From a virus, in IMG/VR virus record IMGVR_UViG_3300032282_003083, positions 1 to 48,563 of that record: a stretch of DNA of 48,563 nt, one strand, 5' to 3'. Every line of letters starts with the position of its first letter. Position 1 is the first letter of the stretch. A model generated the notes under the pieces. It made no database searches, was not told the DNA's origin, and saw only the letters and a list, made by a program, of their open reading frames with translations. This document shows, one piece after another, positions 11,901 through 39,282 of the stretch. The position numbers and the translations under genes are program-made.

Positions 11901-14900
11901 CTATTAAAACAAATGACGTTCTTCCTTCAATTCTATATTATTCCTTAGATCCAATCAATTTGACAATTAATGATTCAACCAAATCTGAAATTATTAGAGA
12001 TGATGAATTATTAAATCACAATCAAATTTTATTAGAAAGTAGTGTTTACTCCGGAAAATTTAATGTTACTAATATATCAAATACTAAATTTGCATACACT
12101 GTTTTAGAAAAACCAGAGGCAAGTCAATACACATCAATTGATGGTCTTTTTGATTACTATACTAATTCTCCAACAGCTTTTGGAAGAATCAATTCTGTTT
12201 CTATTACTTCAAAAGGAAGAAACTATCAAAAAGTTCCTAAAGTTATAGATGTATCTTCCGATTATGGGACAGGAGCAGTATTGCTTGCATCAAGTTCTGG
12301 AATTGGATCGATTACAAATGTAGAAATTCAAGATATTGGATTTGATTATCCTTCAGATTTAAGTTTACAACCAACATCAAAATTACCAGAAATTTTAAAG
12401 ATTGAATCACTTTCGTCATTTAAATCTATAGGAATTAGTTCTGTTGGTAAAAACTATACAATTGCTCCCAATCTTGTCGTAATTGATTCAGTAACTAATA
12501 AAGTAGTTTCTGACGTTGATTTAAAATACAATATTGGCGATTCTAAAGTTACAATTTTAAAAAACACTAAGGGAATTAGTAATGTAACTCCAAAAATTAT
12601 CCCGACAAATAATATTAATGGAGTTGGAATAAGCACGATTAAATTTATTGATTCTACAAAAGATGTTGTTGTAACTCTTGGAGCAAGTTTTAGTAATGCT
12701 GCAGATTTTCCATTTAATATTGGTGATAAAGTATTAATTGAAAGCATCAGTGTTGGAGTAGGGTCAACAGCAAAAGGTTACAATTCTGAAAATTATAATT
12801 ATGCGCTATTTACAGTAGTAAACACTGATCCAAACATTGGAGGTATTGGAGCTACAGTTTCTTATAACTTATCAAATTACTTATCATCAAGTCAAATTCC
12901 AGGAACATTTGATCCTATCAATTCTTATGGAAGAATTATACCAGAAAAACATTTTCCAATTTTTGATATTCAACTTGAAAAAAATCAGTTTTATATCGGA
13001 GAAAATATTTACTCAGAAACAGCATCTGGATCTGTTTTAAGTTGGGAAGATGATAGTAGTTATTTAAAGGTAGCGACAGAACTAGATTTTGCTGAAAATC
13101 AAATTGTATTTGGAGAATCTTCAAATTCTCAGGGAAGAATTGAAAAAGTGATTAAATTTGATTCTCTTTATAATGTAAAATCTTCATCAATAGTTAAAAA
13201 GGGTTGGAATTCTGAAACAGGATTTTTAGATAATAATTTCCAAAGAACGCATGACAATGATTATTATCAATATTTTTCATATGCTCTTCGCTCAGAAGTC
13301 TCATTAGATACGTGGAATGATGCTGTTAGTGATTTAAATCATACTGCCGGATTTAAGAAATTTAGTGATTTAATAGTCGAATCTTCTCCAGAATTTTCTG
13401 GAATTTCTACAAATCAAAATAATGGCGATTTTACTGCTACAGTGGATATTAACACAGTTATTGACACAAATTGTATTTTTGATTTTGACCTTGCAAAGGA
13501 AAATAATATTTTCTTAAATAACAAAACCGTTTCAAACGAAATAACTTTTAATTCAAAAATAATTCAAGATTATATCGAATCAATTGGTAATAGAGTTTTA
13601 ATGATTGATGACTTAAGTCCTCAGTTTAATAGTTCTCCGAGATCTACAGAATTCAGTATTGTTGACACATTCTCAGTTGATGCATTTGATTCTAATGCAT
13701 ATAGATTTAGAAAATATATTGCTTTAGTTACTGATAGATTTACAATCACCGATCAAGAAATGATTCTTGTATCATTGCTTCATAATAATGTAAATGGTTA
13801 TCTAAATCAATATGGTCGTGTTGAAACATTACGTGATTTAGGATCTTTTGATTTCTTAATTGCTGGAACAGAAGCAAATTTATTATTCTATCCAAATTAT
13901 TATTCAGTTAATAACTATGATGTAAGTTTAGCATCATATAATTTAAAAGATAGTATAACTGGAATTGGAACCGTTTCTTTAGGAAATTCTATTGTTTTAA
14001 AGACATCTACAAAAAATATTCCAATAGGAACTTCTACTCCAACAACAATAGTTGGAATTGCTTCTACTTATAGAGCATCAAAACTTTTAATTCAAATTGA
14101 AGCTTCTGATAAATCTTATTTTGAAGTTGATGAGGTTACTGTAATTCATAATGGAACTGATGCTACTTTATTAGAATATGGTCAGATAACGACAGATACT
14201 TTGACTCCATTATCAAGCAGTGGAATAGGAACATATAATGCCACAATTTCAGGATCTAATTTGAACATTTCTTTAACTCCAAATTCTGGATTGGGAACTG
14301 ATTACAATGTAAATGCCTTTATTGTTTCTATAGGCAATACTTCTTCATCAACAACAGGTTCACAAACTATTACTGATTCTATTATTTCATCTACTATAAC
14401 GTCGATTGCATCTTCAACTTCTCCTACAGCTACATCTGTTGCACAATACTCTAGTGATTATTTTGGAGCATATTATATTGCAGTTGTTGAAGATAAAACA
14501 AATAATCAATATCAAATTTCAGAATTAGTTTCGGTATCAAATAGTTCAAACACATCTTTGACAGAATTTGCTGTTCTTCAGACAGGATCATCTGTAGGAT
14601 CATTCAGTATTAATAATACAGGAAGTACAAATCTGTATTTTACACCAATTGCAAATGCAAATGTTGAAGTTCGAGTTTATCAACACACAATTACAAATAT
14701 ACACGATTCATCTTTAACTAAATCAATAGATTTGGTAAATGGATCAATTGATTCAATTTATGGAACATATACTGGTACAGAAATTGATGTTAGAAAGTCA
14801 TTCTACTTGACATATAAAAATAAACCAATTTTTGAAAGATATATTGTCGGAAGTGCTTCAACTGTAGTTAATACTACTACTAATAAAATAAGAGTTCCAC

Positions 14901-17900
14901 AGCATTTCTTTGTAACTGGTGAAGAAATTTCTTATACCTACACTGGTGCAGGAACTTCGACAACAAATGCAATCGGAATTGGAAGCACGGTTATCCCTGG
15001 GATTGGATCAACAGATAAACTTCCTTCGACTTTATATGTTGTTAAATCTAGTGAAATTGATATCCAAGTTGCAGCTTCAGCATCAGAAGCATTAAGAACT
15101 CCTCCAAATGTTCTTACATTGTCGAGTGTTGGTATTGGTACATCTCATGTTTTAAGATCTAAAAATCAAAATGCTAAAGTTTTAATTGGAATTGATAATG
15201 TTATCCAATCACCAATTGTATCGACATCTGTAACAACTACATTAGTTCATAATGTTGAAATAATTGACAGTTCAATTTATGTCGCTGGAATTACTTCTTT
15301 CTTTGCTGGCGATATTGTAAAAATTGATAATGAATTAATGAGATTGACTGCTGTTGGATTTGGAACAACAAATAACATTTTGGTTGATAGGCAATGGATG
15401 GGATCTGGATTATCAACTCATGCATCTGGCAGTGTTGTAACTAAGGTTTTGGGCAACTATAATATTGTGAATAATGTAATTAATTTTTCTGATGCACCAT
15501 ATGGAGAAGTTCCTTTTCCCAATCCATCAAACAGACCAGATGAACAAGATTACATAGGACTCTCCACAAGTTCGACTTTTAGTGGACGTGTATTCTTAAA
15601 ATCAGGAAATCCTGGCTCATTACAGGAATCTTATTATAATAATTATATCTTCGATGATATTTCTAATCAATTTAATGCTACAAATAAAGATTTTACTTTA
15701 AAATCAAATTCTCAAAATATCACTGGCGTATCAACATCAAATGCAATTATATTAATTAACTCAATATTCCAACAACCTAGAAGATTGGGTGCAATTGATA
15801 TAATTGGTGATTACTCTTTAAACGAATCTTCTGGAATAACCACTATATCATTTACTGGTGCAGCATCTTCTATTGCGTATGATGTAAACACTGCATCAGT
15901 TCCTCGTGGTGGAGTTATTGTATCTGTTGGTTCTACTGCAGGATTTGGTTATCAGCCTCTTGTTTCTGCAGGCGGAACAGCGATTGTCTCAGTTGCTGGA
16001 ACAATTTCTGCAATCAGTATTGGAAATAGTGGTTCTGGTTATAGATCTGGATTGCAAACAGTTAAAGTTGGTGTTGCAATTTCAAGTACAGGAATTCCAA
16101 ATATCACTTATGTTGGTGTTGCAACAGTTGTAAATGGTCATGTAACAGGCGTTGCAATTACCAATCCAGGAGTTGGTTATACAACAACAAATCCTCCAAT
16201 TGTTATTTTTGATACTCCTCTTTCATATTCAAATGTTCCATTAATTTATAGTTCTTCATCAAAAGTTGGTGTTGGAACTGAAACTACAGTTGATATCATT
16301 GTTGGACAAGGTTCTAGTATCATCAATTTCGAAATTAAAAATATTGGACACTCCTATGGTCAAGGAGAAATATTGACTGTTGCAATCGGCGGAACTGTGG
16401 GAATTCCTACAAATACATCTTTACAATTTAAGGAATTCCAAATTTCTGTAGATAGAACATTTACAGATAGTTTTTCTGGATGGTCTGTTGGCGATCTTCA
16501 AGTCTTTGATTCACTTGACTCTCTGTTTGATGGAGAAAGAAAAGACTTCCCATTAAGTATTGATGGACAACAAACATCAATAAGAGCTAAAAAAGGTTCA
16601 AATATTGATATTCAAGCAACTCTGTTAGTATTCGTCAATGATATCTTACAAGTTCCTGGAACTGGTTACATATTTAATGGAGGAAGTATTATTACTTTCC
16701 CAGAACCTCCAAAATCAGAAACTAAATCAAAGATAATTTTTTATAAGGGAAATTCTGCTATTGACGTTGAATTTATTGATATTCTTGAAACTGTTAAAGT
16801 TGGTGATAATTTAACATTAACATCAGATAATTCCATATTATCCCAAAATGAAAGACTTGTTACTCAAATTAAATCGTCAGATACAGTATTGACAAATTTA
16901 TACGATGGTCCTGGAATTTCTGTAGATACAACATTATTGAGACCAATAACTTGGTGCAAACAAACTGAAGATATGATTATCAATGGACAAAGAGTTGGAA
17001 AAGATAGAGATAGTTATGAATCTTTGATTCAACCAACTACAAATATTATTCAAAATGTTGGTATTAATTCCACAGAAATATTTGTTGAGAGCGTAAAGAC
17101 TTTCTTTGATAACGCTAGTGAGTATGCATCATCAGAAAATCAACCTAAGAAAATTTTAATCACATCTCAAGATACTTTGGTTGCTGCTGCTGCAACAGCT
17201 GTGGTTTCTGCTGCAGGAACTATTAGTTCTATTGTAATTAGTGATGGTGGAGCAAGATATACTGTTGCACCAGATGTTACGATTGAAAATCCAGTTGGAC
17301 TTGGATCAACTCAAAGAGCATCTGCAGTTTCTTCGATAACTTCTGGAATTGTAACTACTATTTCAGTAACCAGTCCTGGAACTGGATATACAAGCACAAA
17401 TCCACCGCTTGTATTAATTGGATTCCCAACTCCAACTAAAGAAGTTATTACTGGAGTTTCTTATGCCGGAGATTTTGGTGTAATTACTGGAATTAAAACA
17501 ACTTCTGTAGGTGTGGCTTCTACTGGTCTTGTACTAGATCTCTTTATTCCAACAAATTCATTCCTTAGAAACACTAAAGTTAATAGTGTTGGTATTGCAA
17601 CAACAGGAGTAAGTGGAATTCAAACTGGATATTACTTTACCATTTTTAATTCAAATGTTGGTTCCGCAGTTACATCTCTTAGACAAAATGGAACAGTTGT
17701 TGGATATGGAACACAATTTATTGATAACATTTATGAGGTAGCGGCTGTTTCAATTGCACAAACAAGTGTTCCGGGAATTGGCGTAACTTATGTTGCAAAG
17801 GTAACTGTAAGTCTTCAAAGTTATAATGGAATTTCTGGAATAGGATTTAGCAATTTCTACGGCGAATATAGTTGGGGAAGAATTACAAATCTAACAAGAC

Positions 17901-18007
17901 CAAATCCAAAAGCATTTACAATCTATAATAATGGGTTAGCTGGAATTAACACCTCTCCAGTTATTCAAAGAGTTCAACCTCTTAAGTATCGAAATTACAA
18001 CACATAA
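5984..18007 (+). CDS. gp7: Giant gp7-related baseplate wedge protein
   Basis: A single 4007-residue frame in the gp7 position. Residues about 15-40 (LPRFVKEEFPLVVEFLKQYY) and 192-215 (KDFYSSKGTDASFKILFGAL) resemble the C-terminal part of T4 gp7, which as I recall has FYSTKGIEASYKFLF. So the T4-like wedge core is at the N-terminus here. The remaining 3700 residues are repeats. There are about fifteen GGSGY/NPGVGY units (for example near 1100, 1137, 3347, 3796), four GGL...YYV..V...KLA units (near 850, 960, 1852, 3014), and at least three IDDEIITYTSKT-like units. A YHYH-type domain spans 1215-1360, with GWAYDGNPIYGPYGY at 1246-1260 and YAYF at 1324-1327. T4 gp7 is only 1032 residues. It probably links the inner wedge to peripheral fibres, perhaps touching host glycans; that last part is inference. 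Confidence 0.8.
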   Translation: MSEVRVKISQVVESQLPRFVKEEFPLVVEFLKQYYRSFEFQSGSSDLLQKIDQYIKIDQLANLTESTSLTSDVSFVDDEISVSSTYGFPDSYGLILIDDEIITYTSKTSTKFQGCIRGFSGVTSYDDPTTTDQLIFSTSEVAEHTSGSEVTNLSILFLKEFFNKLKKQVSPGFESRSLYSSLNDGLFVKQSKDFYSSKGTDASFKILFGALYGKDVEVIRPRDYLIQPSDAQYRITKDLVVEAIDGDPMDLINKTLYQDYDGFFKKAEGTISKVERIVRGEKEYYIISLDYDYDKDINVSGTVLGEFSIHPTTQLVDNADSSSTTIEVDSTVGFPPSGTLIAKLSNGTSLTITYTEKSLNQFYGCSGITQKLTDGQLIRLDAFAYGYATNTTSDKVKVRVTGVLSDIDILDKTFLYQRDDLIKIKCLGANLTDYKSNNWFYNVSTRYDVKTIQLLDSSDFTYRVNLYDSHNFSIGDSITLIRSDDKEFTSIIVSEEITSTSQSSVISLQNRTSFVIKGQGELDTTKFYTIRKNILKVNSSNYSNLAKYTANVQNTYTDLDETLYVASSSLPNYLNQAINIIDRSVTFSGTFSGTDLNIGIHNFYTGDIIVYNPESSSNKLDLLKGIYFVKKVDETTIKLARSRENIFTNNFISVSGTVTNNKFYFYKFSDDNLNFNSVENQKLIRKLSPAKNDVDTHETIPGSTGIFINGVELLNYKSEDLVYYGQIESINVLSQGNGYDVINPPVLTISDDIGSGSSGYCSVVGSLDRIEVIDPGFDYLEDPIITVSGGNGSGALVKANLVEFDHFVQFNSTSPAGHVNIANNTVGFSSYHKFRSAEKVIYNSQGGTDVGGLSNGAFYYVSIQDAFTVKLHNTLDDAVVGINTIDLTSYGTGIHKLSSIIKKKKLGSITVLSSGTGYQNKKVTTLPIGINTASSVVTISNHGFENGELISYQTTGSTIGGLSTSSNYYVTKVSDSQFRLSAVGISTELQSFYFDTKQYIDFTSTGSGTHIFNYPDISIEVKDRIGVSTLSGQNFSAVLQPIFRGSINSVFVENGGTNYGSEEILNYERQPSFTLTNGSGAEVLPIVSNGKIVEVLVVNGGSGYNSVPNLTITGTGTGAQLTPVVSEGILSEVKVISGGNGYSSTTFVTVTAAGSEAKFGAQIKSWRINLVERLISSNQIPDDDGIIAKSLNQNFGLEYAHAYAPRKLRSSVLAKKFKDGNPIFIPDIQVFSGVEILSDAHSPIIGWAYDGNPIYGPYGYSTPSGGVIKCLKPGYSLALKSNRPSSSIYPSGIFIDDYEFTGSGDLDKYNGRFCITPEYPNGIYAYFCTINSVSADTSGTFKNYRRPLFPYAIGNEYKSKPIDFNFQKSSNQDEIDINKTGWLRNTTPYNATRTRSYYDYIIDPNKIKKQLSVVKGTTKGSISSIGIITGGNGYQIDDQLIFDNKGTNGSGLNAKVSTIGGKQISQIGVANSTVYNVEFVPYGANSFIGFATQPHAFLNNDIVTISSSLDYQKSGLIGISTNTLILTSGIGTTTSTGSVAYFQVSGLLNYPNIRENDIYQIGNEQVQILNIDNLSSRIKVLRNINNGAGLSTYFAGTTLTEVTRKLQLTFGISTSYQYDFNKEFYFDPAESVGLGTTAGPGIGYTLSFANPGAGITQINIPTRAIYLPNHQLKTGTPLIYSSNGGTPISISTNGIASFQIPENSVVYAAKISSDLIGISTIKVGLGTTGSFIGIGSTVANIAYLTNIGVGNTHSFTTVFSNTLVAQVSRNQVTVSTATTHGLQTNDTVYLEIKPTLTKTVVVKYDDYNRRLVVNPQSFVSGNVDLVNDAITLTNHQYVTGEKIIHTSSSPCGGLANEEIYYAIVVDENKIKLAKTYYDATKPIPNIIGISTSSFGTISQINPQIKLTKNYNLTFDVSDSSLSFFNNGVQYSAFDLNFYTDPEFKNVFDSTESSSSFEIVKSGSIGITTTATVTIKTNDVLPSILYYSLDPINLTINDSTKSEIIRDDELLNHNQILLESSVYSGKFNVTNISNTKFAYTVLEKPEASQYTSIDGLFDYYTNSPTAFGRINSVSITSKGRNYQKVPKVIDVSSDYGTGAVLLASSSGIGSITNVEIQDIGFDYPSDLSLQPTSKLPEILKIESLSSFKSIGISSVGKNYTIAPNLVVIDSVTNKVVSDVDLKYNIGDSKVTILKNTKGISNVTPKIIPTNNINGVGISTIKFIDSTKDVVVTLGASFSNAADFPFNIGDKVLIESISVGVGSTAKGYNSENYNYALFTVVNTDPNIGGIGATVSYNLSNYLSSSQIPGTFDPINSYGRIIPEKHFPIFDIQLEKNQFYIGENIYSETASGSVLSWEDDSSYLKVATELDFAENQIVFGESSNSQGRIEKVIKFDSLYNVKSSSIVKKGWNSETGFLDNNFQRTHDNDYYQYFSYALRSEVSLDTWNDAVSDLNHTAGFKKFSDLIVESSPEFSGISTNQNNGDFTATVDINTVIDTNCIFDFDLAKENNIFLNNKTVSNEITFNSKIIQDYIESIGNRVLMIDDLSPQFNSSPRSTEFSIVDTFSVDAFDSNAYRFRKYIALVTDRFTITDQEMILVSLLHNNVNGYLNQYGRVETLRDLGSFDFLIAGTEANLLFYPNYYSVNNYDVSLASYNLKDSITGIGTVSLGNSIVLKTSTKNIPIGTSTPTTIVGIASTYRASKLLIQIEASDKSYFEVDEVTVIHNGTDATLLEYGQITTDTLTPLSSSGIGTYNATISGSNLNISLTPNSGLGTDYNVNAFIVSIGNTSSSTTGSQTITDSIISSTITSIASSTSPTATSVAQYSSDYFGAYYIAVVEDKTNNQYQISELVSVSNSSNTSLTEFAVLQTGSSVGSFSINNTGSTNLYFTPIANANVEVRVYQHTITNIHDSSLTKSIDLVNGSIDSIYGTYTGTEIDVRKSFYLTYKNKPIFERYIVGSASTVVNTTTNKIRVPQHFFVTGEEISYTYTGAGTSTTNAIGIGSTVIPGIGSTDKLPSTLYVVKSSEIDIQVAASASEALRTPPNVLTLSSVGIGTSHVLRSKNQNAKVLIGIDNVIQSPIVSTSVTTTLVHNVEIIDSSIYVAGITSFFAGDIVKIDNELMRLTAVGFGTTNNILVDRQWMGSGLSTHASGSVVTKVLGNYNIVNNVINFSDAPYGEVPFPNPSNRPDEQDYIGLSTSSTFSGRVFLKSGNPGSLQESYYNNYIFDDISNQFNATNKDFTLKSNSQNITGVSTSNAIILINSIFQQPRRLGAIDIIGDYSLNESSGITTISFTGAASSIAYDVNTASVPRGGVIVSVGSTAGFGYQPLVSAGGTAIVSVAGTISAISIGNSGSGYRSGLQTVKVGVAISSTGIPNITYVGVATVVNGHVTGVAITNPGVGYTTTNPPIVIFDTPLSYSNVPLIYSSSSKVGVGTETTVDIIVGQGSSIINFEIKNIGHSYGQGEILTVAIGGTVGIPTNTSLQFKEFQISVDRTFTDSFSGWSVGDLQVFDSLDSLFDGERKDFPLSIDGQQTSIRAKKGSNIDIQATLLVFVNDILQVPGTGYIFNGGSIITFPEPPKSETKSKIIFYKGNSAIDVEFIDILETVKVGDNLTLTSDNSILSQNERLVTQIKSSDTVLTNLYDGPGISVDTTLLRPITWCKQTEDMIINGQRVGKDRDSYESLIQPTTNIIQNVGINSTEIFVESVKTFFDNASEYASSENQPKKILITSQDTLVAAAATAVVSAAGTISSIVISDGGARYTVAPDVTIENPVGLGSTQRASAVSSITSGIVTTISVTSPGTGYTSTNPPLVLIGFPTPTKEVITGVSYAGDFGVITGIKTTSVGVASTGLVLDLFIPTNSFLRNTKVNSVGIATTGVSGIQTGYYFTIFNSNVGSAVTSLRQNGTVVGYGTQFIDNIYEVAAVSIAQTSVPGIGVTYVAKVTVSLQSYNGISGIGFSNFYGEYSWGRITNLTRPNPKAFTIYNNGLAGINTSPVIQRVQPLKYRNYNT

Positions 18008-28241: not shown

Positions 28242-29624
28242 ATGCTTAACCCATTTTTTCTTCAAGGATCAAAAACAGAACAAGGGTTGATTCAGGATCT
28301 GATCAATGAACAACTCCGCATGTATGGAGTTGAAATTTTTTATATTCCAAGAAAATACGTTACAAAAAACACAATTATTAAAGAAGTAATTGAATCCAAA
28401 TTTGATTATGCATATCCATTAGAAGCTTACGTTAACACATATGATGGATATGAAGGGCAAGGAACAATACTTTCAAAATTTGGAATTCAACCACTTACAG
28501 ATTTAACTATTACAATATCAAGGGAAAGATATGAAACATATATTACTCCTTTGATAAAGAATTTGCCGGACATTGAATTATCAACTAGACCAAAAGAGGG
28601 TGATTTAATTTATTTTCCTCTTGGTGATCGTTTATTTGAAATTAAATTTGTTGAACATGAGCAACCATTTTATCAACTTCAGAAAACTTATGTTTATGAA
28701 TTGAAATGCGAACTCTTTAGATATGAAGATGAAGAAATATCTACAGGTATTGAAGAAATTGATGACAATATTTCCAACGCTGATGGATATGTACAAACCC
28801 TTAATTTGGTTGGTGTTGGAACAACCGCAACAGCAATTAGTGGTATTTTAAATGGTGGTATAAAACTCATTACATTAACAAATAGAGGTAGTGGTTATAC
28901 ATCAACACCAAGAGTTGCAATATCTTCAGCGCCAAGTGGAGGATTAACTGCTGTTGGTATTGCAACAATGATTGGTGGTCTTATTGATTGTAATGGAACA
29001 ACAGCACTTAAGATTCAAGGTGTTGAACTTATAAATCCTGGGTATGGTTATACAGTTGCCCCATCAGTGGCATTTATTGGTGGTGGAGGAAGTGGAGCGG
29101 CTGCAACAACTGTTCTTGGAAATGGTGTTGTTGGAATTATAACAATTACAAACGGTGGGGGAGGTTATGCAAACGCTCCTTCAGTAAGCATTACCACAGC
29201 ACCTGCAGGAGGAACTAATGCCACTGCGAGAGCATATATTAACTCAGTCGGTATTGTTACTTCTATACGAGTTACAAATGCGGGGGCTGGTTATACAGTT
29301 CCTCCAACAATAACAATTGGATCTCCGTATATGGTTGGTTTTGGTACATATGTGTTAAATGAGACTGTCACGGGAAGTATTAGTAATACAACAGCACTTG
29401 TTAGAAAATGGGATGCCACTACCAATGAACTTGATGTTTATAAGATCGATGGTAATTTTGTAGATGGAGATTTGATTGTCGGAGCAGCATCTTCAGCTAC
29501 ATATAAACTTAGAATATATGAAACCTATAATGTTGTTGATCCATATGCTCAAAATAAACAAATTGAAACCGAGGCAGATCAAATTTTAGATTTCACAGAA
29601 ACAAATCCATTCGGAACACCATAA
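28242..29624 (+). CDS. gp14: Neck protein gp14 with repeat insertion
   Basis: gp14 is the second neck protein and completes the head-tail joint. The first 170 residues are canonical: MLNPFFLQGSKTEQGLIQDL, YGVEIFYIPRKYVTKNTIIK, RPKEGDLIYFPLGDRLFEIK and YQLQKTYVYELKCELFRYED. The end (QNKQIETEADQILDFTETNP) also matches the family. Between about 187 and 360 there is an extra block with four GxGY beta units (GSGY 216-219, GYGY 267-270, GGGY 306-309, GAGY 348-351), 40-50 residues apart, followed by a small beta segment. That insertion accounts for the 460 residues against 256 in T4. The extra domain probably protrudes from the neck as a decoration; its ligand is unknown. Confidence 0.9.
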   Translation: MLNPFFLQGSKTEQGLIQDLINEQLRMYGVEIFYIPRKYVTKNTIIKEVIESKFDYAYPLEAYVNTYDGYEGQGTILSKFGIQPLTDLTITISRERYETYITPLIKNLPDIELSTRPKEGDLIYFPLGDRLFEIKFVEHEQPFYQLQKTYVYELKCELFRYEDEEISTGIEEIDDNISNADGYVQTLNLVGVGTTATAISGILNGGIKLITLTNRGSGYTSTPRVAISSAPSGGLTAVGIATMIGGLIDCNGTTALKIQGVELINPGYGYTVAPSVAFIGGGGSGAAATTVLGNGVVGIITITNGGGGYANAPSVSITTAPAGGTNATARAYINSVGIVTSIRVTNAGAGYTVPPTITIGSPYMVGFGTYVLNETVTGSISNTTALVRKWDATTNELDVYKIDGNFVDGDLIVGAASSATYKLRIYETYNVVDPYAQNKQIETEADQILDFTETNPFGTP

Positions 29625-31102: not shown

Positions 31103-31438
31103 ATGGCAGTACCAGCAGTTAATATTACAATAGAGCAAGGTACGGATTTCGAAAACGTTTACACGGTTACAAATCCAGATGGAACTCCTTTGGATTTAAC
31201 TGGTTATACTTCGTCTGCCAAAATTAAAAAATTTCCTAGTTCTACCACATCTTCATCATTTTCAGTAGGAATTGTAACTTCTGCTGGACAAGTTGTTGTA
31301 TCGATGGCACATACTGTCACCAATGCCCTTTCTCCCGGTAGATATTATTATGATGTGATAATTACATCTGGATCTACAGGTAAAATTTCCAGAATTATTG
31401 AAGGTATGGCATTAATAACTCCATCAGTTTCAACGTAA
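31103..31438 (+). CDS. Small Ig-like (BppU-type) virion protein
   Basis: A 111-residue all-beta protein. The pattern AVNITIEQGTDFENVYTVTN, PDGTPLDLTGYTSSAKIKKF and later LSPGRYYYDVIITSGSTGK fits the N-terminal BppU-like or Ig-like domain that many phages use as an upper baseplate or fibre connector (G..F...V.V....G.PLDLTG....A.I). It is coupled to the collagen-like fibre gene by a one-base TAATG overlap, so it may be the adaptor that anchors that fibre. The function is an inference from fold and place. Confidence 0.72.
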   Translation: MAVPAVNITIEQGTDFENVYTVTNPDGTPLDLTGYTSSAKIKKFPSSTTSSSFSVGIVTSAGQVVVSMAHTVTNALSPGRYYYDVIITSGSTGKISRIIEGMALITPSVST

Positions 31439-34400
31439 TGGCAGTATCACTCGCAAGTACGACTCACAATGTTACTGTTGGTTACAAACCAACTCTTGGA
31501 GTTGCTTTAGCATCGCCATCTCTTCAAGGTGTTCAAGGAACTCAAGGAACTCAAGGTACTCAGGGAACACAGGGACTTCAAGGTCTTCAAGGTTTACAAG
31601 GTCTGAATGGAGCTTTTGCTGGACAAGGTGTTCAGGGAACTCAAGGTCTTCAGGGTCTTCAAGGACTTCAGGGTCTACAAGGTCTTCAAGGTGTTCAAGG
31701 TCCTCAGGGTCTTCAAGGTCTACAAGGACTTCAGGGTCTCCAAGGTCTTCAAGGCGTTCAAGGGCCCCAAGGTCTTTGGGGAGCTCAAGGAGTTCAAGGT
31801 CTTCAAGGTTTACAAGGTTTACAAGGTTTACAAGGTCTTCAAGGCGTTCAGGGAAAATTAGGTTCTCAAGGAACCCAGGGCCTCCAGGGCCTCCAAGGTT
31901 TACAAGGTCTCCAAGGTCTTTGGGGAGCTCAAGGTGTTCAAGGTCTTCAAGGTCTTCAGGGTGTTCAAGGTGTTCAAGGTCCTTTTGGAACACAAGGGAC
32001 ACAGGGAACATTAGGCGTTCAAGGCTCAACTGGTTCTCAAGGTTCTGTTGGAATTCAAGGTGCTGTTGGTTCTCAAGGTACTCAGGGAGCTTTAGGATCT
32101 CAAGGAACTCAAGGTACTCAGGGAACACAAGGACTTCAAGGTGTTCAAGGTCTTTGGGGTGCTCAAGGAACTCAAGGAACTCAGGGACATCAAGGAACTC
32201 AAGGTCTTCAAGGACTTCAAGGTGTTCAAGGTCTTTGGGGTGCTCAAGGAACTCAAGGAACTCAGGGACATCAAGGAACTCAAGGTCTTCAAGGATTACA
32301 GGGCCTCCAAGGTCTCTGGGGTGCTCAAGGAACTCAGGGTCTTCAAGGTCTTCAGGGCCTTCAAGGTCTTCAGGGTGTCCAAGGTGTTCAGGGTGTTCAG
32401 GGTGTTCAGGGTGAGGTTGGTAGTTTTGGTGGAGCTACTTTTGATTATACATTTAGCACTAACACATTAGATTCTGATCCTGGAACTGGAAAATTAAAAT
32501 TTGATAATTCTAATATTTCTTCGGCACTACACCTTTATATTAATGAATATGATGATGGTGGAGTATATATTCATAATTTCTTACAAACCATTGATGATAG
32601 CACATCAACAATTAAAGGGCACTTTAAAGTTTCTGAAAAATTAAATGCCGAAAATTTTGCTTTATATACAATCTCAGCTCTTACATATACTCCAACATAT
32701 TTCAAAGTTGACTGTGCATATGTTTCTGGCAGCGTAACAACATTTCCAAACCTTGATGATGTTATCATTACTTTCGCAAGAACAGGTGATAAGGGTGATA
32801 CAGGATCTCAAGGAACTCAAGGTCTTCAAGGCGTCCAAGGTCTTTTAGGTATTCAGGGTGTCCAAGGACTTCAGGGTCTGCAAGGTCTTCAAGGATTACA
32901 GGGCCTCCAAGGTCTCTGGGGTGCTCAAGGAACTCAAGGAACTCAAGGACACCAAGGAACGCAGGGTCTTCAAGGACTTCAGGGTGTTCAGGGGCAGTTA
33001 GGTGCTCAAGGAACTCAAGGATTACAAGGTCTCCAGGGTCTCCAGGGTCTCCAGGGTCTTCAAGGTCTCCAAGGTCTTTGGGGAGCGCAAGGAACTCAGG
33101 GTGTTCAGGGTGGTTTAAGTGCTCAGGGTGCTGTAGGTTCTCAAGGAACACAGGGAACATTAGGTGTTCAAGGTTCAACTGGGGCCCAAGGTTCTGTTGG
33201 AATTCAAGGTGACGTTGGTTCTCAAGGAACTCAAGGAACATTGGGTGTTCAAGGCACTCAGGGAACGCAAGGACTTCAAGGTCTTCAAGGACTTCAAGGT
33301 CTTCAAGGTCTCCAAGGCCTTCAAGGTGTTCAGGGTGGAATTGGTACACAAGGTATTCAGGGTGTTCAAGGTTTACAAGGACCTCAAGGACTTCAGGGTC
33401 TTCAAGGTGTTCAGGGTGGAATAGGTACACAAGGTATCCAAGGTGTTCAAGGTCTTCAGGGAGCTCAAGGACATCAAGGAACTCAAGGAACCCAAGGTCT
33501 TCAAGGATTGCAGGGTCTCCAAGGTCTTCAGGGAGCTCAAGGACATCAAGGAACTCAAGGAACTCAAGGACTTCAAGGCCTTCAGGGTCTCCAAGGTCTT
33601 CAAGGTATTTCTGGAGGAAACGCTGGAAAAATTTATTATTTTGATAAAACTGCTTCTGGGATTGGAACCTATTATACAGCATTAGAAAGTCCATCAACAA
33701 ATGGAATTCAAACAACAACCGTTACAGTCAATACAACCTCTACACTAGTTTATGTTGATGGATTTATTACACCCACAGGTTCTCCGGGTGTAGTTTCTCT
33801 GCCAGTGGGAGAGGGTGAAATTAGCGTTTACGCAACATTGAGCAATTCAAATGCTGTTGCACAATTTACTCTCGAAGTTCTTAAATGTAATAATGATGGA
33901 ACTGGATTAACAACTGTTTCTTATTCAACCTCCAATACTTTTACTGGAGATACGAGACAGGATATTCACTTCAATTATGTTATATCAACTCCATATACTT
34001 TACTAACTACAGATCGTCTTGTATTCCGAATTTACGCAACAAGAGTAAGTGGATCAAATAGTTTTGATATTATAGTTAATTATGCGGATCAAACTGAGAG
34101 TAACATCCGAACTACAATTAGTGTTGGTGCCCAAGGTCTTCAGGGAACTCAAGGAACTCAAGGACTTCAAGGTCTCCAGGGTCTTCAGGGTCTCCAAGGA
34201 GCACAGGGAATTCAAGGTCTTCAAGGAGCTCAAGGACACCAGGGAACTCAAGGCCTTCAAGGTCTTCAAGGTGTCCAAGGACAATTAGGTTCTCAAGGAG
34301 CTCAAGGGCACCAGGGAACACAGGGTCTCCAAGGTCTTCAAGGTCTCCAAGGACTTCAAGGATTGCAAGGTCTTCAAGGTCTTCAAGGTGTCCAAGGACA

Positions 34401-36384
34401 ATTAGGTTCTCAAGGAACTCAAGGAACATTGGGTGTTCAAGGAGCGACAGGTTCTCAAGGTTCTGTTGGAATTCAAGGAGACGTTGGTTCTCAAGGAACT
34501 CAAGGATCTACTGGAACTCAAGGTGCTGTAGGATCTCAGGGCTCAGTAGGATCTCAAGGTGCCATTGGATCTCAAGGTGCAGTAGGTTCTCAAGGCACTC
34601 AAGGTTTACAAGGTCTCCAGGGTCTCCAGGGTCTTCAAGGAGCTCAAGGACACCAAGGAACTCAAGGACTACAAGGTCTTCAGGGAGCTCAAGGACACCA
34701 AGGTCTTCAAGGTCTCCAAGGTCTTCAGGGAGCTCAAGGACATCAAGGAACTCAGGGTGGATTAAGTGCCCAAGGAACTCAAGGTACTCAAGGATTGCAA
34801 GGTACTCAAGGTACTCAAGGCCTTCAAGGTGTACAAGGTCAGGTAGGTAGTTTTGGTGGTGCTAGTTTTGATTATACATTTGATAGTTCTACTACAAATT
34901 CTGATCCAGGAACCGGCAAACTTAGATTTAGTAATGTAAATATCTCTTCCGCACTTCACCTTTATATTGATGACACCGATGATAGTTCAACCAATATCGA
35001 TAGTTTTATGCAAACTATTGATGACAGTACATCAACAATTAAGGGACATTTTAGAGTTTCAAACAAAACAAATTCTGCAAACTTTGTTCTGTTTACAATT
35101 TCAGCATTAACCGATAATGGTGGATATTATGATATTGATTGTGCATATGTATCTGGTAGCGTAACTACATTTACGGATACGGATGTCATCATTACTTTCG
35201 CAAGAACAGGTGATAAGGGTGATACAGGATCTCAAGGAACTCAAGGTCTTCAGGGTGTTCAGGGACAATTTGGTTCACAAGGAAGTCAAGGTCTACAAGG
35301 TCTTCAAGGTTTACAAGGTCTTCAAGGCGTTCAAGGACAATTGGGCGCTCAAGGAACTCAGGGGGTGCAGGGTGGTTTAAGTGCTCAAGGTGCTGTAGGA
35401 TCTCAAGGCGCAGTAGGATCGCAAGGTTCTTCTGGTACAAATGGATCTCAAGGTTCTACTGGTTCTCAAGGTTCTTCTGGTGCAAACGGATCTCAAGGTG
35501 CAGTAGGATCACAAGGATCACAAGGTACATTGGGCGCTCAAGGAGCAACAGGAACTCAAGGATCTACTGGTACTCAAGGTTCTGTAGGTTCTCAGGGAAC
35601 ACAAGGAGCTTTGGGAACTCAAGGCAATTCTGGCGCTCAAGGTTCTACTGGTTCTCAAGGTTCTTCTGGTGCAAACGGATCTCAAGGTGCAGTAGGATCA
35701 CAAGGATCGCAAGGATTACAAGGTCTCCAGGGTTCTACTGGTTCTCAAGGTTCTTCTGGATCTTCAGGTTCTCAAGGAACTCAAGGATTACAAGGTCTCC
35801 AGGGTTCTACTGGTTCTCAGGGTATATCAGGATCCTCTGGTTCAAATGGTTCTCAAGGAGCAGCAGGATCTCAAGGGACTCAAGGAACTACAGGTACGGG
35901 CACTCAAGGAGCATCTGGATCTGGTGGACCAGTGGCTGGTATTACAACATCTGGCATTTACTATCCACTGTTTGTTGAAGGATCGGGTGTTCAAAATCCA
36001 TATATTAGAACAACAGCTACAGCATTTAGTTTTAATCCAAGCACAAGTGCTCTGTCAATTGGTGGAACAATGACAGCAGTTGATTTTAATTCAACTTCAG
36101 ATAAAAATTTAAAAACAAATATTCAACCAGTTAAAGATCCGATTGCAAAAATTATTCAAATTAATGGTGTCACATTTGATTGGAAAGCAAATAATCAACC
36201 AGCAATTGGCGTGATTGCACAAGAAATTGAAGAAATTTTCCCAGAACTTGTATCTGTGTCTGAAGTTAATCATTGTAAGACTGTAAAATATAATGGTTTA
36301 ATTGGTGTTCTAATTGAGGGAATTAAGGAGCAACAAACTCAAATAAATAGTCTCAAACAGGAAATAGAGAAACTTAAAGAGTAA
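31438..36384 (+). CDS. Collagen-like tail fibre with S74 chaperone
   Basis: A 1648-residue fibre. After a 30-residue N-terminal anchor there are four collagen-type Gly-X-Y blocks (about residues 31-325, 456-723, 897-1133 and 1262-1499), mostly GLQ, GTQ, GVQ, GAQ and GSQ triplets with very little proline. Between them lie beta domains. A (326-455) and C (1134-1261) are copies of each other (SFGGATFDYTF, ISSALHLYI, TIDDSTSTIKGHF, SGSVTTF); B (724-896) differs. The C-terminus (1554-1648) is a peptidase S74 intramolecular chaperone: S1554-D-K-N-L-K1559 gives the Ser-Lys dyad of self-cleavage, followed by GVIAQEIEEIFPELV and a coiled-coil end. It should trimerise and then lose the chaperone. Likely a host-recognition fibre. 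Confidence 0.87.
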   Translation: MAVSLASTTHNVTVGYKPTLGVALASPSLQGVQGTQGTQGTQGTQGLQGLQGLQGLNGAFAGQGVQGTQGLQGLQGLQGLQGLQGVQGPQGLQGLQGLQGLQGLQGVQGPQGLWGAQGVQGLQGLQGLQGLQGLQGVQGKLGSQGTQGLQGLQGLQGLQGLWGAQGVQGLQGLQGVQGVQGPFGTQGTQGTLGVQGSTGSQGSVGIQGAVGSQGTQGALGSQGTQGTQGTQGLQGVQGLWGAQGTQGTQGHQGTQGLQGLQGVQGLWGAQGTQGTQGHQGTQGLQGLQGLQGLWGAQGTQGLQGLQGLQGLQGVQGVQGVQGVQGEVGSFGGATFDYTFSTNTLDSDPGTGKLKFDNSNISSALHLYINEYDDGGVYIHNFLQTIDDSTSTIKGHFKVSEKLNAENFALYTISALTYTPTYFKVDCAYVSGSVTTFPNLDDVIITFARTGDKGDTGSQGTQGLQGVQGLLGIQGVQGLQGLQGLQGLQGLQGLWGAQGTQGTQGHQGTQGLQGLQGVQGQLGAQGTQGLQGLQGLQGLQGLQGLQGLWGAQGTQGVQGGLSAQGAVGSQGTQGTLGVQGSTGAQGSVGIQGDVGSQGTQGTLGVQGTQGTQGLQGLQGLQGLQGLQGLQGVQGGIGTQGIQGVQGLQGPQGLQGLQGVQGGIGTQGIQGVQGLQGAQGHQGTQGTQGLQGLQGLQGLQGAQGHQGTQGTQGLQGLQGLQGLQGISGGNAGKIYYFDKTASGIGTYYTALESPSTNGIQTTTVTVNTTSTLVYVDGFITPTGSPGVVSLPVGEGEISVYATLSNSNAVAQFTLEVLKCNNDGTGLTTVSYSTSNTFTGDTRQDIHFNYVISTPYTLLTTDRLVFRIYATRVSGSNSFDIIVNYADQTESNIRTTISVGAQGLQGTQGTQGLQGLQGLQGLQGAQGIQGLQGAQGHQGTQGLQGLQGVQGQLGSQGAQGHQGTQGLQGLQGLQGLQGLQGLQGLQGVQGQLGSQGTQGTLGVQGATGSQGSVGIQGDVGSQGTQGSTGTQGAVGSQGSVGSQGAIGSQGAVGSQGTQGLQGLQGLQGLQGAQGHQGTQGLQGLQGAQGHQGLQGLQGLQGAQGHQGTQGGLSAQGTQGTQGLQGTQGTQGLQGVQGQVGSFGGASFDYTFDSSTTNSDPGTGKLRFSNVNISSALHLYIDDTDDSSTNIDSFMQTIDDSTSTIKGHFRVSNKTNSANFVLFTISALTDNGGYYDIDCAYVSGSVTTFTDTDVIITFARTGDKGDTGSQGTQGLQGVQGQFGSQGSQGLQGLQGLQGLQGVQGQLGAQGTQGVQGGLSAQGAVGSQGAVGSQGSSGTNGSQGSTGSQGSSGANGSQGAVGSQGSQGTLGAQGATGTQGSTGTQGSVGSQGTQGALGTQGNSGAQGSTGSQGSSGANGSQGAVGSQGSQGLQGLQGSTGSQGSSGSSGSQGTQGLQGLQGSTGSQGISGSSGSNGSQGAAGSQGTQGTTGTGTQGASGSGGPVAGITTSGIYYPLFVEGSGVQNPYIRTTATAFSFNPSTSALSIGGTMTAVDFNSTSDKNLKTNIQPVKDPIAKIIQINGVTFDWKANNQPAIGVIAQEIEEIFPELVSVSEVNHCKTVKYNGLIGVLIEGIKEQQTQINSLKQEIEKLKE
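31531..32412 (+). repeat. Collagen triplet repeat block 1
   Basis: In-frame 9-base units coding Gly-X-Gln, mainly variants of CAAGGTCTT and CAAGGAACT. Near-identical neighbouring copies make this DNA prone to length change by recombination. Confidence 0.85.
32413..32803 (+). repeat. Fibre beta domain copy A
   Basis: Codes GSFGGATFDYTF to FARTGDKGDTG. The same domain recurs at 34839-35221, an internal duplication inside the fibre gene. Confidence 0.75.
32804..33606 (+). repeat. Collagen triplet repeat block 2
   Basis: A second run of Gly-X-Gln codons, including GGIGTQGIQGVQG units repeated at 33335 and 33416. Confidence 0.83.
34127..34838 (+). repeat. Collagen triplet repeat block 3
   Basis: A third run of Gly-X-Gln codons with several GAQGHQGTQG units. 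Confidence 0.83.
34839..35221 (+). repeat. Fibre beta domain copy C
   Basis: Duplicate of the domain at 32413-32803, with matches at GSFGGASFDYTF, SDPGTGKLRF, ISSALHLYI, TIDDSTSTIKGHF and FARTGDKGDTG, separated by less conserved acidic loops. Confidence 0.75.
35222..35935 (+). repeat. Collagen triplet repeat block 4
   Basis: A run richer in Ser, Thr, Ala and Asn (GSTGSQGSSGANGSQG) than blocks 1-3, repeated at 35455 and 35642. Confidence 0.83.
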
Positions 36385-36400
36385 ACTTTGTTATTTTTTT

Positions 36401-37366
36401 ATGAATTTCGTAAAACATGTATTGGAACGTGGCGGTTCTATTAAACCCCTTGTTATTCCATCAGAACTTACAAACGGAACTGGTCTATGCAATCCATCAG
36501 TGTTTGTAGAAGACGATAATATATTTTTAAATCTTCGGCATATTCAATATACGTTATACCATTCTGAACTTTGTAATTACGAGCATCAGTATGGTCCTTT
36601 GGTTTATTTAAATCCGGAAAATGATATCAGTCTTACAACGACAAATTATTTTTGCGAATTAAATAATGATCTTGATATTGTTCGGTATAACAAAGTAGAC
36701 ACATCGAAATTAGATGTTAGACCAATTTGGGAATTTGTTGGTCTTGAAGATGCAAGATTAATTAAATGGGACGATAAGTATTATCTTTCTGGAGTTCGTA
36801 GAGATACAACTACGAATGGGCAAGGAAGAATGGAACTAAGTGAACTCGAAATTACTGATACGGAAGTTAAAGAAATTTCTAGATTTCGTATTCCAGCTCC
36901 TGGAGATGACAGTTCTTATTGTGAAAAAAATTGGATGCCAATTTTAGATCAACCATTTCATTATGTAAAATGGACAAATGGAACTGAAGTTGTAAAGGTT
37001 GATATTGAAAATAAAACTTGCGAAACTACTGTTCTCAAAAATTGGATACAAGCACCTAAAGATCTTCGTGGCGGATCTCAAGTAATGCCATATAAAGATG
37101 GATATTTGACTCTCAATCATGAGACGGATTTATATAAAAGTGAGGCAGGTAGAAAAGATGCAACCTATAGACACAGATTTACTTATTGGGATAAAGATTG
37201 GAATATTCAAAAGTTTTCTGAAGTCTTTTCATTCTTAGAAGCAAAAATTGAGTTTGCTTGTGGAATGGCAAAATATAAAAATGATTATTTAATTTCATTT
37301 GGATTTCAAGATAATGCGGCATATATTCTTAGAGTTCCTGGAAAACTAATGGAGGAATTTGTATGA
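36401..37366 (+). CDS. GH130-like five-bladed propeller protein
   Basis: A 321-residue protein with the layout of GH130 and related glycosidases or phosphorylases, which act on mannosides. Motifs follow the family order: NPSVFVEDDNIFLNLR at about 31-46, VGLEDARLIKWDDKYYLSG with E116-D117, a catalytic-type acidic pair, then YCEKNWMPILDQPFHYVKW (E175-K-N-W178), LRGGSQVMPYKDGYL and KIEFACGMAKYKNDYLISFG near the C-terminus. There is no signal peptide, so it acts in the cytoplasm or is carried in the virion. It lies between the collagen-like fibre and a GT25-type protein and overlaps the latter by four bases (ATGA), so the two are co-translated. Trimming or remodelling of fibre or host glycans is a reasonable inference; substrate unknown. 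Confidence 0.74.
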   Translation: MNFVKHVLERGGSIKPLVIPSELTNGTGLCNPSVFVEDDNIFLNLRHIQYTLYHSELCNYEHQYGPLVYLNPENDISLTTTNYFCELNNDLDIVRYNKVDTSKLDVRPIWEFVGLEDARLIKWDDKYYLSGVRRDTTTNGQGRMELSELEITDTEVKEISRFRIPAPGDDSSYCEKNWMPILDQPFHYVKWTNGTEVVKVDIENKTCETTVLKNWIQAPKDLRGGSQVMPYKDGYLTLNHETDLYKSEAGRKDATYRHRFTYWDKDWNIQKFSEVFSFLEAKIEFACGMAKYKNDYLISFGFQDNAAYILRVPGKLMEEFV

Positions 37367-39282
37367 ATAAACTTCAAGGATTTCCTACAGTTTTTTATGT
37401 TACCTTAGAGGAAGATATTGAAAGACAAGATCTACTAACAAATGCATTTGCAAAATATGAGATTGCCCCAATTGCATTGAAATCTAAAAGATTTGATGAA
37501 ACAAATGATATTGTTACGGGAAAATATATTGATAATCTAACAGGACCAACAAGAGGATGTATTACTTCACATCTTAAGGCAATTTGTCAGTGGTTCAATA
37601 CCACAAATGAATCTTATGGATTTTTTTGTGAAGATGATTTATCATTAGAAACTGTAAACTATTGGAATTTTACTTGGAATCAATTTATTGCCACTCTTCC
37701 TGAAGATTGGGATGCAGTTCAATTATTGGTTGTTCGTAGTAGTTTTGAGGAAGTTAAACTTCGTGAAAGAAAATGGGATGATTGGGCTCAAACAGCGTAT
37801 ATTCTTGAAAGAGACTATGCAAAAAAACTTTTAGATTTTTATGTAAAGGAAGATAGTTTTTGTTTAGAAGTTGAAGATTTAATGCCGATTGGAGAAAATA
37901 TTCTTTTTACTCCAGGAAAAACATATTCATATCCTTTATTTGTTGAAAATACGAACATAAATTCTACAGATGTAAATGATCCTGAAATTGAAAACGGGCA
38001 AAAACCAAATCATCATTATGCTTCAAACTTTATCTTAAATTGGTGGAAAAAAATGGAAGATCCATTAATTGCTTACTCTTATGATACAGAAAACTCACAA
38101 CTTAATTTTAATTTAGCTCTATGGTATGAAAAACAAGGACAGACAGCATCTGCAATTTCATTTTTTTTAAGGGCAGCAGATAGATCAGATAACCTAGAGC
38201 TTGCCTATGAATGTCTTTTACACATGGCAGATTGCTTCCATAAGCAAACCAATCGAACTTATACGGTTAGAGGATTATATCAACACGCATCCACAATTTT
38301 ACCAAAAAGACCAGAGGCATATTATTTACTTGCCAAATATCAAGAATGGCAAACTCAATATGCAGAATGCTATACAACCTGCTGCACAGCGTTAAGTCTT
38401 TGTGATTTTAATTCTATTCCATTATCGACGGATGTAGGATATCCTGGAAAATTTGGGATTATTTTTCAAAAAGCAATTTCCGCATATTGGTGGGGTAAAG
38501 GCGATGAGTCAAGAAAGATACTCCAAGATCTGAAAAATAATTATGAACTTGATGATGTTCATTACAAATCTGTTGGTGATAATTTGATGCGTCTTGCATC
38601 TAATGTGCCAGAATATCAAATCAAATATGACAAATCGAGATATGAAAAAGTAAGATATAAATTTGATGGGTTAGAGACCATTGAACAAAACTATTCTCAA
38701 ATTTTTCAAGATATGTTTATTCTTGCAGTTCTTAATGGCAAGAAAAATGGAACGTATTTGGAAATTGGAGCCCAACAACCATTCTATCAAAGTAACACTG
38801 CACTATTAGAGACTAAATTTGAATGGAAAGGAGTTTCAATTGAAATTAAAGAAGATTTGTGCAGAATGTTTTCTGAACAGAGAGGAAATGCAATTATTTG
38901 TCAAGATGCAACACAGATTGATTATAAAAAATTACTTCAAAAAAACTTTGATACGAAAGTGATTGATTATCTTCAAGTTGATATTGAACCCTCCAAAACA
39001 ACTTTTGAGGCATTACTTTCCATTCCATTTGATGAATATAAGTTTGCGGTTGTAACTTACGAGCACGATCATTATGTCGATATGACCAATTCATATCGTT
39101 CCAAGTCTAGAAAGTATATGGAACTTATGGGGTATGAATTAGTTGTTGCAAATGTATCTGGAAACGACTTCTGTCCATTTGAAGATTGGTGGGTACATCC
39201 AGAATTGGTAGATAAAAAAATTATTGAAAAATTTAAATCAATTCAAGAAGTTACGGACGTAAGAAAATATTTCTATTCCTAA
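37363..39282 (+). CDS. GT25-like / TPR / FkbM-like fusion protein
   Basis: A 639-residue three-part protein. Residues 1-195 look like a GT25 glycosyltransferase: VFYVTLEEDIERQDLLTNAF, then the family motif with C66 and H70 (RGCITSHLKAICQW) and E90-D-D92 in FFCEDDLSLE, the metal/nucleotide-sugar site. GT25 includes LPS galactosyltransferases and animal procollagen galactosyltransferases. Residues 233-395 are helical repeats of TPR type (NLALWYEKQGQTASAISFFL, then PEAYYLLAKYQEWQTQYAEC). From about 443 an FkbM-like methyltransferase follows (QIFQDMFILAVLNG, TYLEIGAQQPF as the SAM-binding strand, LQVDIEPSKTTF). It starts four bases inside the GH130-like gene. Together this suggests building, measuring and methyl-capping a glycan. 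Which substrate is unknown. Confidence 0.74.
   Translation: MNKLQGFPTVFYVTLEEDIERQDLLTNAFAKYEIAPIALKSKRFDETNDIVTGKYIDNLTGPTRGCITSHLKAICQWFNTTNESYGFFCEDDLSLETVNYWNFTWNQFIATLPEDWDAVQLLVVRSSFEEVKLRERKWDDWAQTAYILERDYAKKLLDFYVKEDSFCLEVEDLMPIGENILFTPGKTYSYPLFVENTNINSTDVNDPEIENGQKPNHHYASNFILNWWKKMEDPLIAYSYDTENSQLNFNLALWYEKQGQTASAISFFLRAADRSDNLELAYECLLHMADCFHKQTNRTYTVRGLYQHASTILPKRPEAYYLLAKYQEWQTQYAECYTTCCTALSLCDFNSIPLSTDVGYPGKFGIIFQKAISAYWWGKGDESRKILQDLKNNYELDDVHYKSVGDNLMRLASNVPEYQIKYDKSRYEKVRYKFDGLETIEQNYSQIFQDMFILAVLNGKKNGTYLEIGAQQPFYQSNTALLETKFEWKGVSIEIKEDLCRMFSEQRGNAIICQDATQIDYKKLLQKNFDTKVIDYLQVDIEPSKTTFEALLSIPFDEYKFAVVTYEHDHYVDMTNSYRSKSRKYMELMGYELVVANVSGNDFCPFEDWWVHPELVDKKIIEKFKSIQEVTDVRKYFYS

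What the first reader, a model, noticed from the sequence alone, without database searches (positions are those of the whole stretch)
31438..39282. Candidate phage collagen-glycosylation cassette
A 1648-residue collagen-like fibre gene is followed within 17 bases by a GH130-like protein and then, by an ATGA overlap, a protein joining a GT25-type transferase, TPR-like repeats and an FkbM-like methyltransferase. GT25 is the family of animal procollagen galactosyltransferases as well as bacterial LPS transferases. C66/H70 and E90-D-D92 fit its motif. The fibre triplets are full of Ser, Thr and Asn (GTQ, GSQ, GAN) that could be decorated, as on the spore collagen BclA. Seen: the genes, motifs and coupling. 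Inferred: that the fibre is the substrate.
Basis: partly seen in the sequence, partly recalled or inferred. Interest (0 to 1): 0.78.

Follow-up and report, generated by a model that had tools for sequence, protein, structure and literature searches.

The report
Phage fibre-linked sugar-modification cassette
Two neighbouring genes in an uncultured T4-like phage form a mobile, mix-and-match sugar-building kit that tends to sit just behind tail-fibre genes, often but not always collagen-like ones; the kit is real and mostly undescribed, but what it decorates is unproven and the animal-collagen chemistry suggested is unlikely.

Summary
The genes and coupling are real: collagen-like fibre (31438-36384), 16-base gap, GH130-like protein (36401-37366), 4-base overlap, GT25-TPR-FkbM protein (37363-39282). 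The GH130-like protein models as a GH130/GT108 beta-propeller (pLDDT 90). Its nearest folds are uncharacterised phage and giant-virus proteins, some fused to sugar-modifying domains. The N-terminal domain is genuine GT25.

The survey changes the picture. The conserved unit is GH130-like plus a TPR protein: of 94 distinct GH130-like genes, 91 have the TPR gene within seven genes downstream and one is fused to it. Enzyme domains around the TPR swap: GT25, GT2, GT17, FkbM and other methyltransferases, 2OG-oxygenase-like, radical SAM. GT25 is optional and not linked to collagen (p=0.28). The core does lie downstream of fibres: collagen ORFs within three genes upstream in 30/73, downstream in 3/72 (p=6e-8). 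Many neighbours are non-collagen virion proteins.

Best explanation: a modular glycan-assembly cassette that glycosylates and O-methylates the adjacent fibre or virion protein (substrate inferred, about 0.5). Main rival: host surface-glycan remodelling. COLGALT-type hydroxylysine chemistry is unlikely: 3 Lys in 698 X/Y positions. New variant of phage-encoded glycosylation.

The parts
31103..31438 (+). small protein just upstream of the fibre (phrog_1084; also matches phrog_3304, L-shaped tail fibre assembly, E=1.4e-26); stop codon overlaps the fibre start
   Evidence: also found upstream of collagen fibres in L002, L181 and L182
31438..36384 (+). collagen-like tail fibre, 1648 aa, 349 Gly-X-Y triplets, C-terminal S74 intramolecular chaperone; candidate acceptor
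36401..37366 (+). GH130/GT108-like five-bladed propeller, conserved core of the cassette; putative active-site residues N31, R46, E116, D117, K176, H240, D304, all invariant in 44 phage sequences
   Evidence: residue mapping by motif spacing against PMC4599007 and bacterial GH130 sequences is inference
37363..38010 (+). GT25 glycosyltransferase domain (residues 1-216 of the second protein), optional module
38050..38607 (+). TPR scaffold (about residues 230-415), conserved core of the cassette; fold resembles the TPRs of O-GlcNAc transferase and SPINDLY
38620..39279 (+). FkbM-like SAM methyltransferase domain (about residues 420-639), frequent module

Best explanation
A modular glycan-assembly cassette of T4-like phages. 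The constant parts are a GH130/GT108-type propeller enzyme, which most likely makes or breaks a mannose-type linkage using a sugar phosphate or sugar nucleotide, and a TPR protein that gathers the acceptor and other enzymes. The variable parts, here GT25 and FkbM, extend the glycan and cap it by O-methylation. The cassette is probably expressed with the virion genes among which it lies and most likely decorates the fibre or neighbouring virion protein encoded just upstream, changing adsorption, stability or recognition. Shown: gene order, coupling, folds and families, domain swapping, directional placement behind fibre/virion genes. Inferred: timing, activity, linkage, O-methylation target, and that the fibre is the acceptor.
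For: Of 94 GH130-like clusters, the TPR partner is at +1 in 73, within 7 genes in 91, and fused in 1. Reverse search: 63 of 71 TPR-FkbM loci hold GH130; in 7 of the other 8 the TPR ORF begins close to the contig edge, and L185 has about 4.9 kb upstream without it. Enzyme domains swap on the TPR protein, and neighbours are GT2, GT11, GT7C, GT17, FkbM, DUF6445, GDP-mannose dehydratase and DegT. GH130/GT108 fold; giant-virus relatives, some fused to sugar-modifying domains. GT25 profile hits solved GT25 enzymes. Collagen upstream 30/73 vs downstream 3/72, p=6e-8; non-collagen ORFs of 500 aa or more upstream 26/73 vs downstream 8/72. Many independent placements: at least 16 changes of collagen adjacency on the GH130 tree. 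Close relatives in cellular genomes: 5 loci, of which L249 and L250 clearly lie on phage-type contigs. Precedent: virion glycosylation with a phage glycosyltransferase and methyltransferase (Freeman 2023, cited in PMC13313380).
Against: No direct evidence that any virion protein is modified. Some cassettes have no fibre next door (for example L039), and in 26 of 58 loci with 4 kb upstream neither a collagen ORF nor an ORF of 700 aa or more lies within three genes. Ser/Thr content of pair-adjacent collagens is not clearly higher than in other phage collagens (T 27% vs 20%), and L198 nearly lacks Ser/Thr. GT25 single genes in cyanophages lie in clusters that look like surface-glycan synthesis.
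Confidence: 0.5

Rival explanations
1. Host surface remodelling: the cassette modifies the host LPS, O-chain or exopolysaccharide during infection, for example to exclude rival phages. Nearness to fibres reflects the hypervariable host-recognition region of these genomes, where tail fibres and surface-glycan genes are swapped together.
For: Pelagimyophage host-recognition clusters mix tail fibres and glycosyltransferases and were read this way (PMC7029224). Lone GT25 genes in cyanophages sit with GDP-fucose synthase, heptose epimerase and other GTs. Neighbouring genes include sugar-nucleotide synthesis.
Against: The strong upstream-only asymmetry for collagen (30/73 vs 3/72) and the operon-like short gaps in a virion-gene module are better explained by coupling to a fibre product; a TPR scaffold of the O-GlcNAc transferase type suggests, weakly, a protein acceptor.
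Confidence: 0.3
2. Animal-style collagen glycosylation: the GT25 domain transfers galactose to hydroxylysine of the triple helix as COLGALT1 does.
For: GT25 profile matches COLGALT1 (E=0.004) and mimivirus R655 (1e-6); R655 is a putative collagen glycosyltransferase (PMC9546862).
Against: Nearly no Lys or Pro in Gly-X-Y positions (3 and 4 of 698) and no hydroxylase in the window cassette; GT25 is not linked to collagen; the closest solved relative is a bacterial GT25 galactosyltransferase.
Confidence: 0.03
3. The pair degrades or salvages host glycans (GH130 mannoside phosphorylase as an auxiliary metabolic gene), and its place beside fibres is incidental.
For: GH130 fold and the 'MGP' label given to the S-SCSM2R copy.
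Against: Near-obligate partner with TPR-glycosyltransferase/methyltransferase proteins, no catabolic partners seen, and giant-virus relatives fused to biosynthetic domains.
Confidence: 0.1

Closest known systems
GH130 mannoside phosphorylases/mannosidases and GT108 mannosyltransferases (Leishmania MPT)
   Same: Same fold (PDB matches 7fir, 9fj8, 6q4x, 6q50, TM 0.56-0.60); N-x15-R, E-D, K, H and D motifs kept
   Different: 11-16% identity, Pfam sub-threshold, apparently virus-specific clade, EDAR instead of EDPR in most members, near-obligate TPR/methyltransferase partner
GH130-like proteins of pithoviruses, Solivirus and other giant viruses
   Same: Closest folds found (TM 0.75-0.82), several joined to other sugar-modifying domains
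   Different: Only 16-23% identical, eukaryotic viruses, uncharacterised
GT25 family (bacterial beta-1,4-galactosyltransferase 8xlz, mimivirus R655, COLGALT1)
   Same: GxxxSH and EDD motifs and a later dW..aaY...R pattern
   Different: Fused to TPR and FkbM; closest to phage GT25 and bacterial enzymes, weakest to COLGALT1
Actinobacteriophage virion glycosylation (Freeman et al. 2023, cited in PMC13313380)
   Same: Phage-encoded glycosyltransferase plus methyltransferase linked to glycosylated virions
   Different: Different enzymes and phages; no GH130-like or TPR core described there to my knowledge
Mimivirus collagen modification (L230, R699; PMC9546862)
   Same: A virus that carries collagens and collagen-modifying enzymes
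   Different: Hydroxylysine chemistry; here Lys is nearly absent

Membership tests
GH130/GT108 superfamily | five-bladed beta-propeller fold | tested here: met
   model pLDDT 90; the first 39 PDB hits are GH130 or GT108 type, E down to 3.4e-8
GH130/GT108 superfamily | sequence membership at Pfam's curated cut-off | tested here: not met
   17.8 bits against a cut-off of 26; profile-profile E=0.00045 with bacterial GH130s. It is therefore filed as GH130-like, not as a GH130 member
GH130/GT108 superfamily | sugar-binding residues (BT3780 Asn74, Arg89, Glu141, Asp142, Asp363) | tested here: inconclusive
   N31, R46, E116, D117 and D304 are invariant in 44 sequences and the Asn-Arg spacing is 15 in both, but the mapping is by motif and not by structural superposition
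GH130 phosphorylase | basic phosphate-binding residues rather than the hydrolase's glutamates | tested here: inconclusive
   H240 and R223 suggest the phosphorylase/GT108 type, by motif alignment only
GH130 or GT108 activity | mannoside phosphorolysis or GDP-mannose transfer | not testable with these tools
   needs enzyme assay
GT25 | conserved SH and EDD motifs and GT25 homology | tested here: met
Procollagen galactosyltransferase (COLGALT) | hydroxylysine acceptor in Gly-X-Y | tested here: not met
   3 Lys in 698 X/Y positions, no hydroxylase in the window cassette
FkbM methyltransferase | FkbM domain homology | tested here: met
   weak in the window copy (E=0.051), 2.2e-21 in a relative
Phage virion glycosylation system | glycan present on virion proteins | not testable with these tools
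   needs mass spectrometry of virions

The most novel reading that the evidence does not exclude
A virus-specific clade of GH130-like enzymes, shared by T4-like phages and giant viruses, is a new kind of glycosyltransferase that starts or builds mannose-type glycans on fibre proteins. A TPR scaffold with exchangeable enzyme domains writes a variable, methyl-capped glycan on each phage's fibre, giving a second, swappable layer of host specificity beyond fibre sequence.
Probability: 0.25. Interest if true: 0.85.

Novelty: new variant of a known kind. Interest (0 to 1): 0.55.

Why it matters
If the fibre is glycosylated, the host range of these abundant aquatic phages would depend on enzyme modules as well as on fibre sequence, and sequence-only host prediction would miss it. 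The fold link to giant-virus proteins suggests a virus-specific branch of the GH130/GT108 superfamily.

Tried and rejected
Direct sequence search of the PDB with the GH130-like protein, its profile and the L095 bridge gave nothing; fold search was needed. Profile comparison with a single bacterial GH130 failed; with 20 bacterial GH130s it succeeded only over the N-terminal third. The late promoter motif TATAAATA is rarer than chance in the window (1 vs 5.2 expected) and promoter/terminator scans were at background, so expression timing could not be inferred. Enrichment of Ser/Thr in pair-adjacent collagens was tested and is not convincing. A GT25-collagen association was tested and not found. 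Collagen in the terS-TerL interval was too rare for a test; collagen within 10.5 kb upstream of TerL gave 6/14 with the pair vs 2/22 without (p=0.036), only suggestive and not corrected for relatedness. Paper searches found no description of this GH130-TPR-FkbM cassette, but only open-access full text was searched.

Full report
Setting. The window is an IMG/VR virus fragment with T4-like baseplate, neck, tail-sheath, tail-tube, portal and terminase genes. Its terminase relatives are T4-like viral contigs, and the cassette is also found in named Synechococcus phages.

Observation. The fibre has 349 Gly-X-Y triplets and a C-terminal S74 chaperone. The GH130-like gene starts 16 bases after it, and the third gene overlaps by ATGA behind a GAGGA ribosome-binding-like stretch. 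No obvious Shine-Dalgarno sequence precedes the GH130-like gene, and the terminator scan reported no site on the + strand at the fibre/GH130 junction.

What the GH130-like protein is. Pfam gives only a sub-threshold GH130 match, but 29 of 46 relatives match. An AlphaFold2 model on 44 phage sequences has mean pLDDT 90, and its PDB fold matches are almost all GH130 or GT108 enzymes. BT3780 binds mannose with Asn74, Arg89, Glu141, Asp142 and Asp363, and Lys199 sets beta-1,2 specificity (PMC4599007). The phage family has invariant N31 and R46 (same spacing of 15), E116-D117, D304, and K176 at nearly the same distance from the aspartate (59 vs 57). H240 aligns with the His of the YHG motif in the bacterial GH130 consensus, where hydrolase-type sequences have Asn. 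This mapping is by motif, not by superposition, and is inference. Among viral proteins, the closest folds are uncharacterised phage and pithovirus proteins (TM 0.75-0.82) and a Solivirus protein labelled fucosyltransferase, clearly closer than cellular GH130s (TM about 0.5-0.6). In cellular genomes the scan found five close relatives. L249 and L250 carry S74 or T4-type virion genes; L247, L248 and L251 are short MAG contigs with the GH130-TPR pair but too little context to tell.

What the second protein is. Residues 1-216 are GT25. A profile of 31 phage domains matches a solved bacterial GT25 (8xlz, E=3.8e-8), mimivirus R655 (1e-6) and COLGALT1 (0.004). S69 and E90-D91-D92 are invariant and H70 nearly so; C66 is not. 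The middle is a TPR solenoid like that of O-GlcNAc transferase and SPINDLY, which is a fold similarity and not evidence of function. The C-terminus is FkbM-like.

The conserved unit. Three scans of viral contigs, one narrower scan with the second protein and named phage records gave 156 GH130-like genes in 94 clusters at 95% identity. The TPR partner is at +1 in 73 clusters, within seven genes in 91, and fused in one. Part of this set was fetched with the TPR protein as query; the GH130-query loci alone show the same coupling. Across 46 second proteins, the TPR part carries FkbM, GT25, GT2, GT17, GT7C, Methyltransf_24, DUF6445 or radical SAM domains. Genes between or after them add GT2, GT11, FkbM, DUF6445, GDP-mannose dehydratase and DegT. 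GT25 is thus one optional module.

Link to fibres. Of 73 cluster representatives with at least 1.5 kb upstream, the gene directly before GH130 is collagen-like in 18 (gene-shuffle expectation 4.1, sd 1.9; length-weighted 10.9, sd 2.7). Within three genes, collagen is upstream in 30/73 and downstream in 3/72 (Fisher p=6e-8); large non-collagen ORFs show the same bias more weakly. Non-collagen neighbours include S74 fibres and PHROG virion structural or tail proteins. Collagen adjacency changes at least 16 times on the GH130 tree, so the placement is not one inherited event. The Fisher tests themselves do not correct for relatedness. Near TerL, 6 of 14 loci with the pair and 2 of 22 without have collagen upstream (p=0.036).

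GT25 presence does not predict collagen. The window collagen has almost no Lys or Pro at X/Y, so COLGALT-type hydroxylysine glycosylation is unlikely. L198 has a collagen neighbour with 2% Ser/Thr and 34% Asn.

Mechanism. I favour a glycan-assembly cassette whose constant propeller enzyme and TPR scaffold work with swappable transferases and methyltransferases to decorate the fibre or nearby virion protein. The precedent is virion glycosylation in actinobacteriophages. The main rival, host surface modification, was proposed for mixed fibre/glycosyltransferase regions of pelagimyophages and is not excluded.

Novelty. Phage-encoded glycosylation is known. The GH130-like/TPR core, its domain swapping and its giant-virus fold relatives were not found described in the open-access library searched, so I file it as a new variant of a known kind.

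Noticed in passing
L005, L007, L015, L030, L042 and others, second protein C-terminus: About a quarter of the TPR proteins scanned match DUF6445 (13 of 46), with HxD...H residues as in 2OG-Fe(II) oxygenases, a possible hydroxylase beside glycosyltransferases; it also occurs as a separate neighbouring gene (10 of 103).
   Followed up: partly
fold relatives of window 36401-37366: The nearest structural relatives of the phage GH130-like protein include pithovirus LCPAC proteins, and some giant-virus copies are in proteins labelled fucosyltransferase, WcaK-like or LicD: a possible virus-specific clade.
   Followed up: partly
L249:3611-4372, L250:7131-7910: Genes with a TGGFDPLHSGHI motif near the start, like HldE-type nucleotidyltransferases used for ADP-heptose, sit behind the GH130-TPR pair.
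   Followed up: no
window 2109-2876: phrog_1574 protein with a weaker match to a phage glycosyltransferase family (E=6.5e-8), a second possible sugar gene in the window.
   Followed up: no
window 5984-18007: A 4007-aa ORF with a YHYH domain in the baseplate region.
   Followed up: no
window 28242-29624: Head-closure (Hc2) homologue with a repetitive Gly-rich C-terminal extension that matches tail-fibre and virion structural families.
   Followed up: no
window, both strands: The T4-type late motif TATAAATA occurs once where about 5 are expected by chance, perhaps avoided outside promoters.
   Followed up: no
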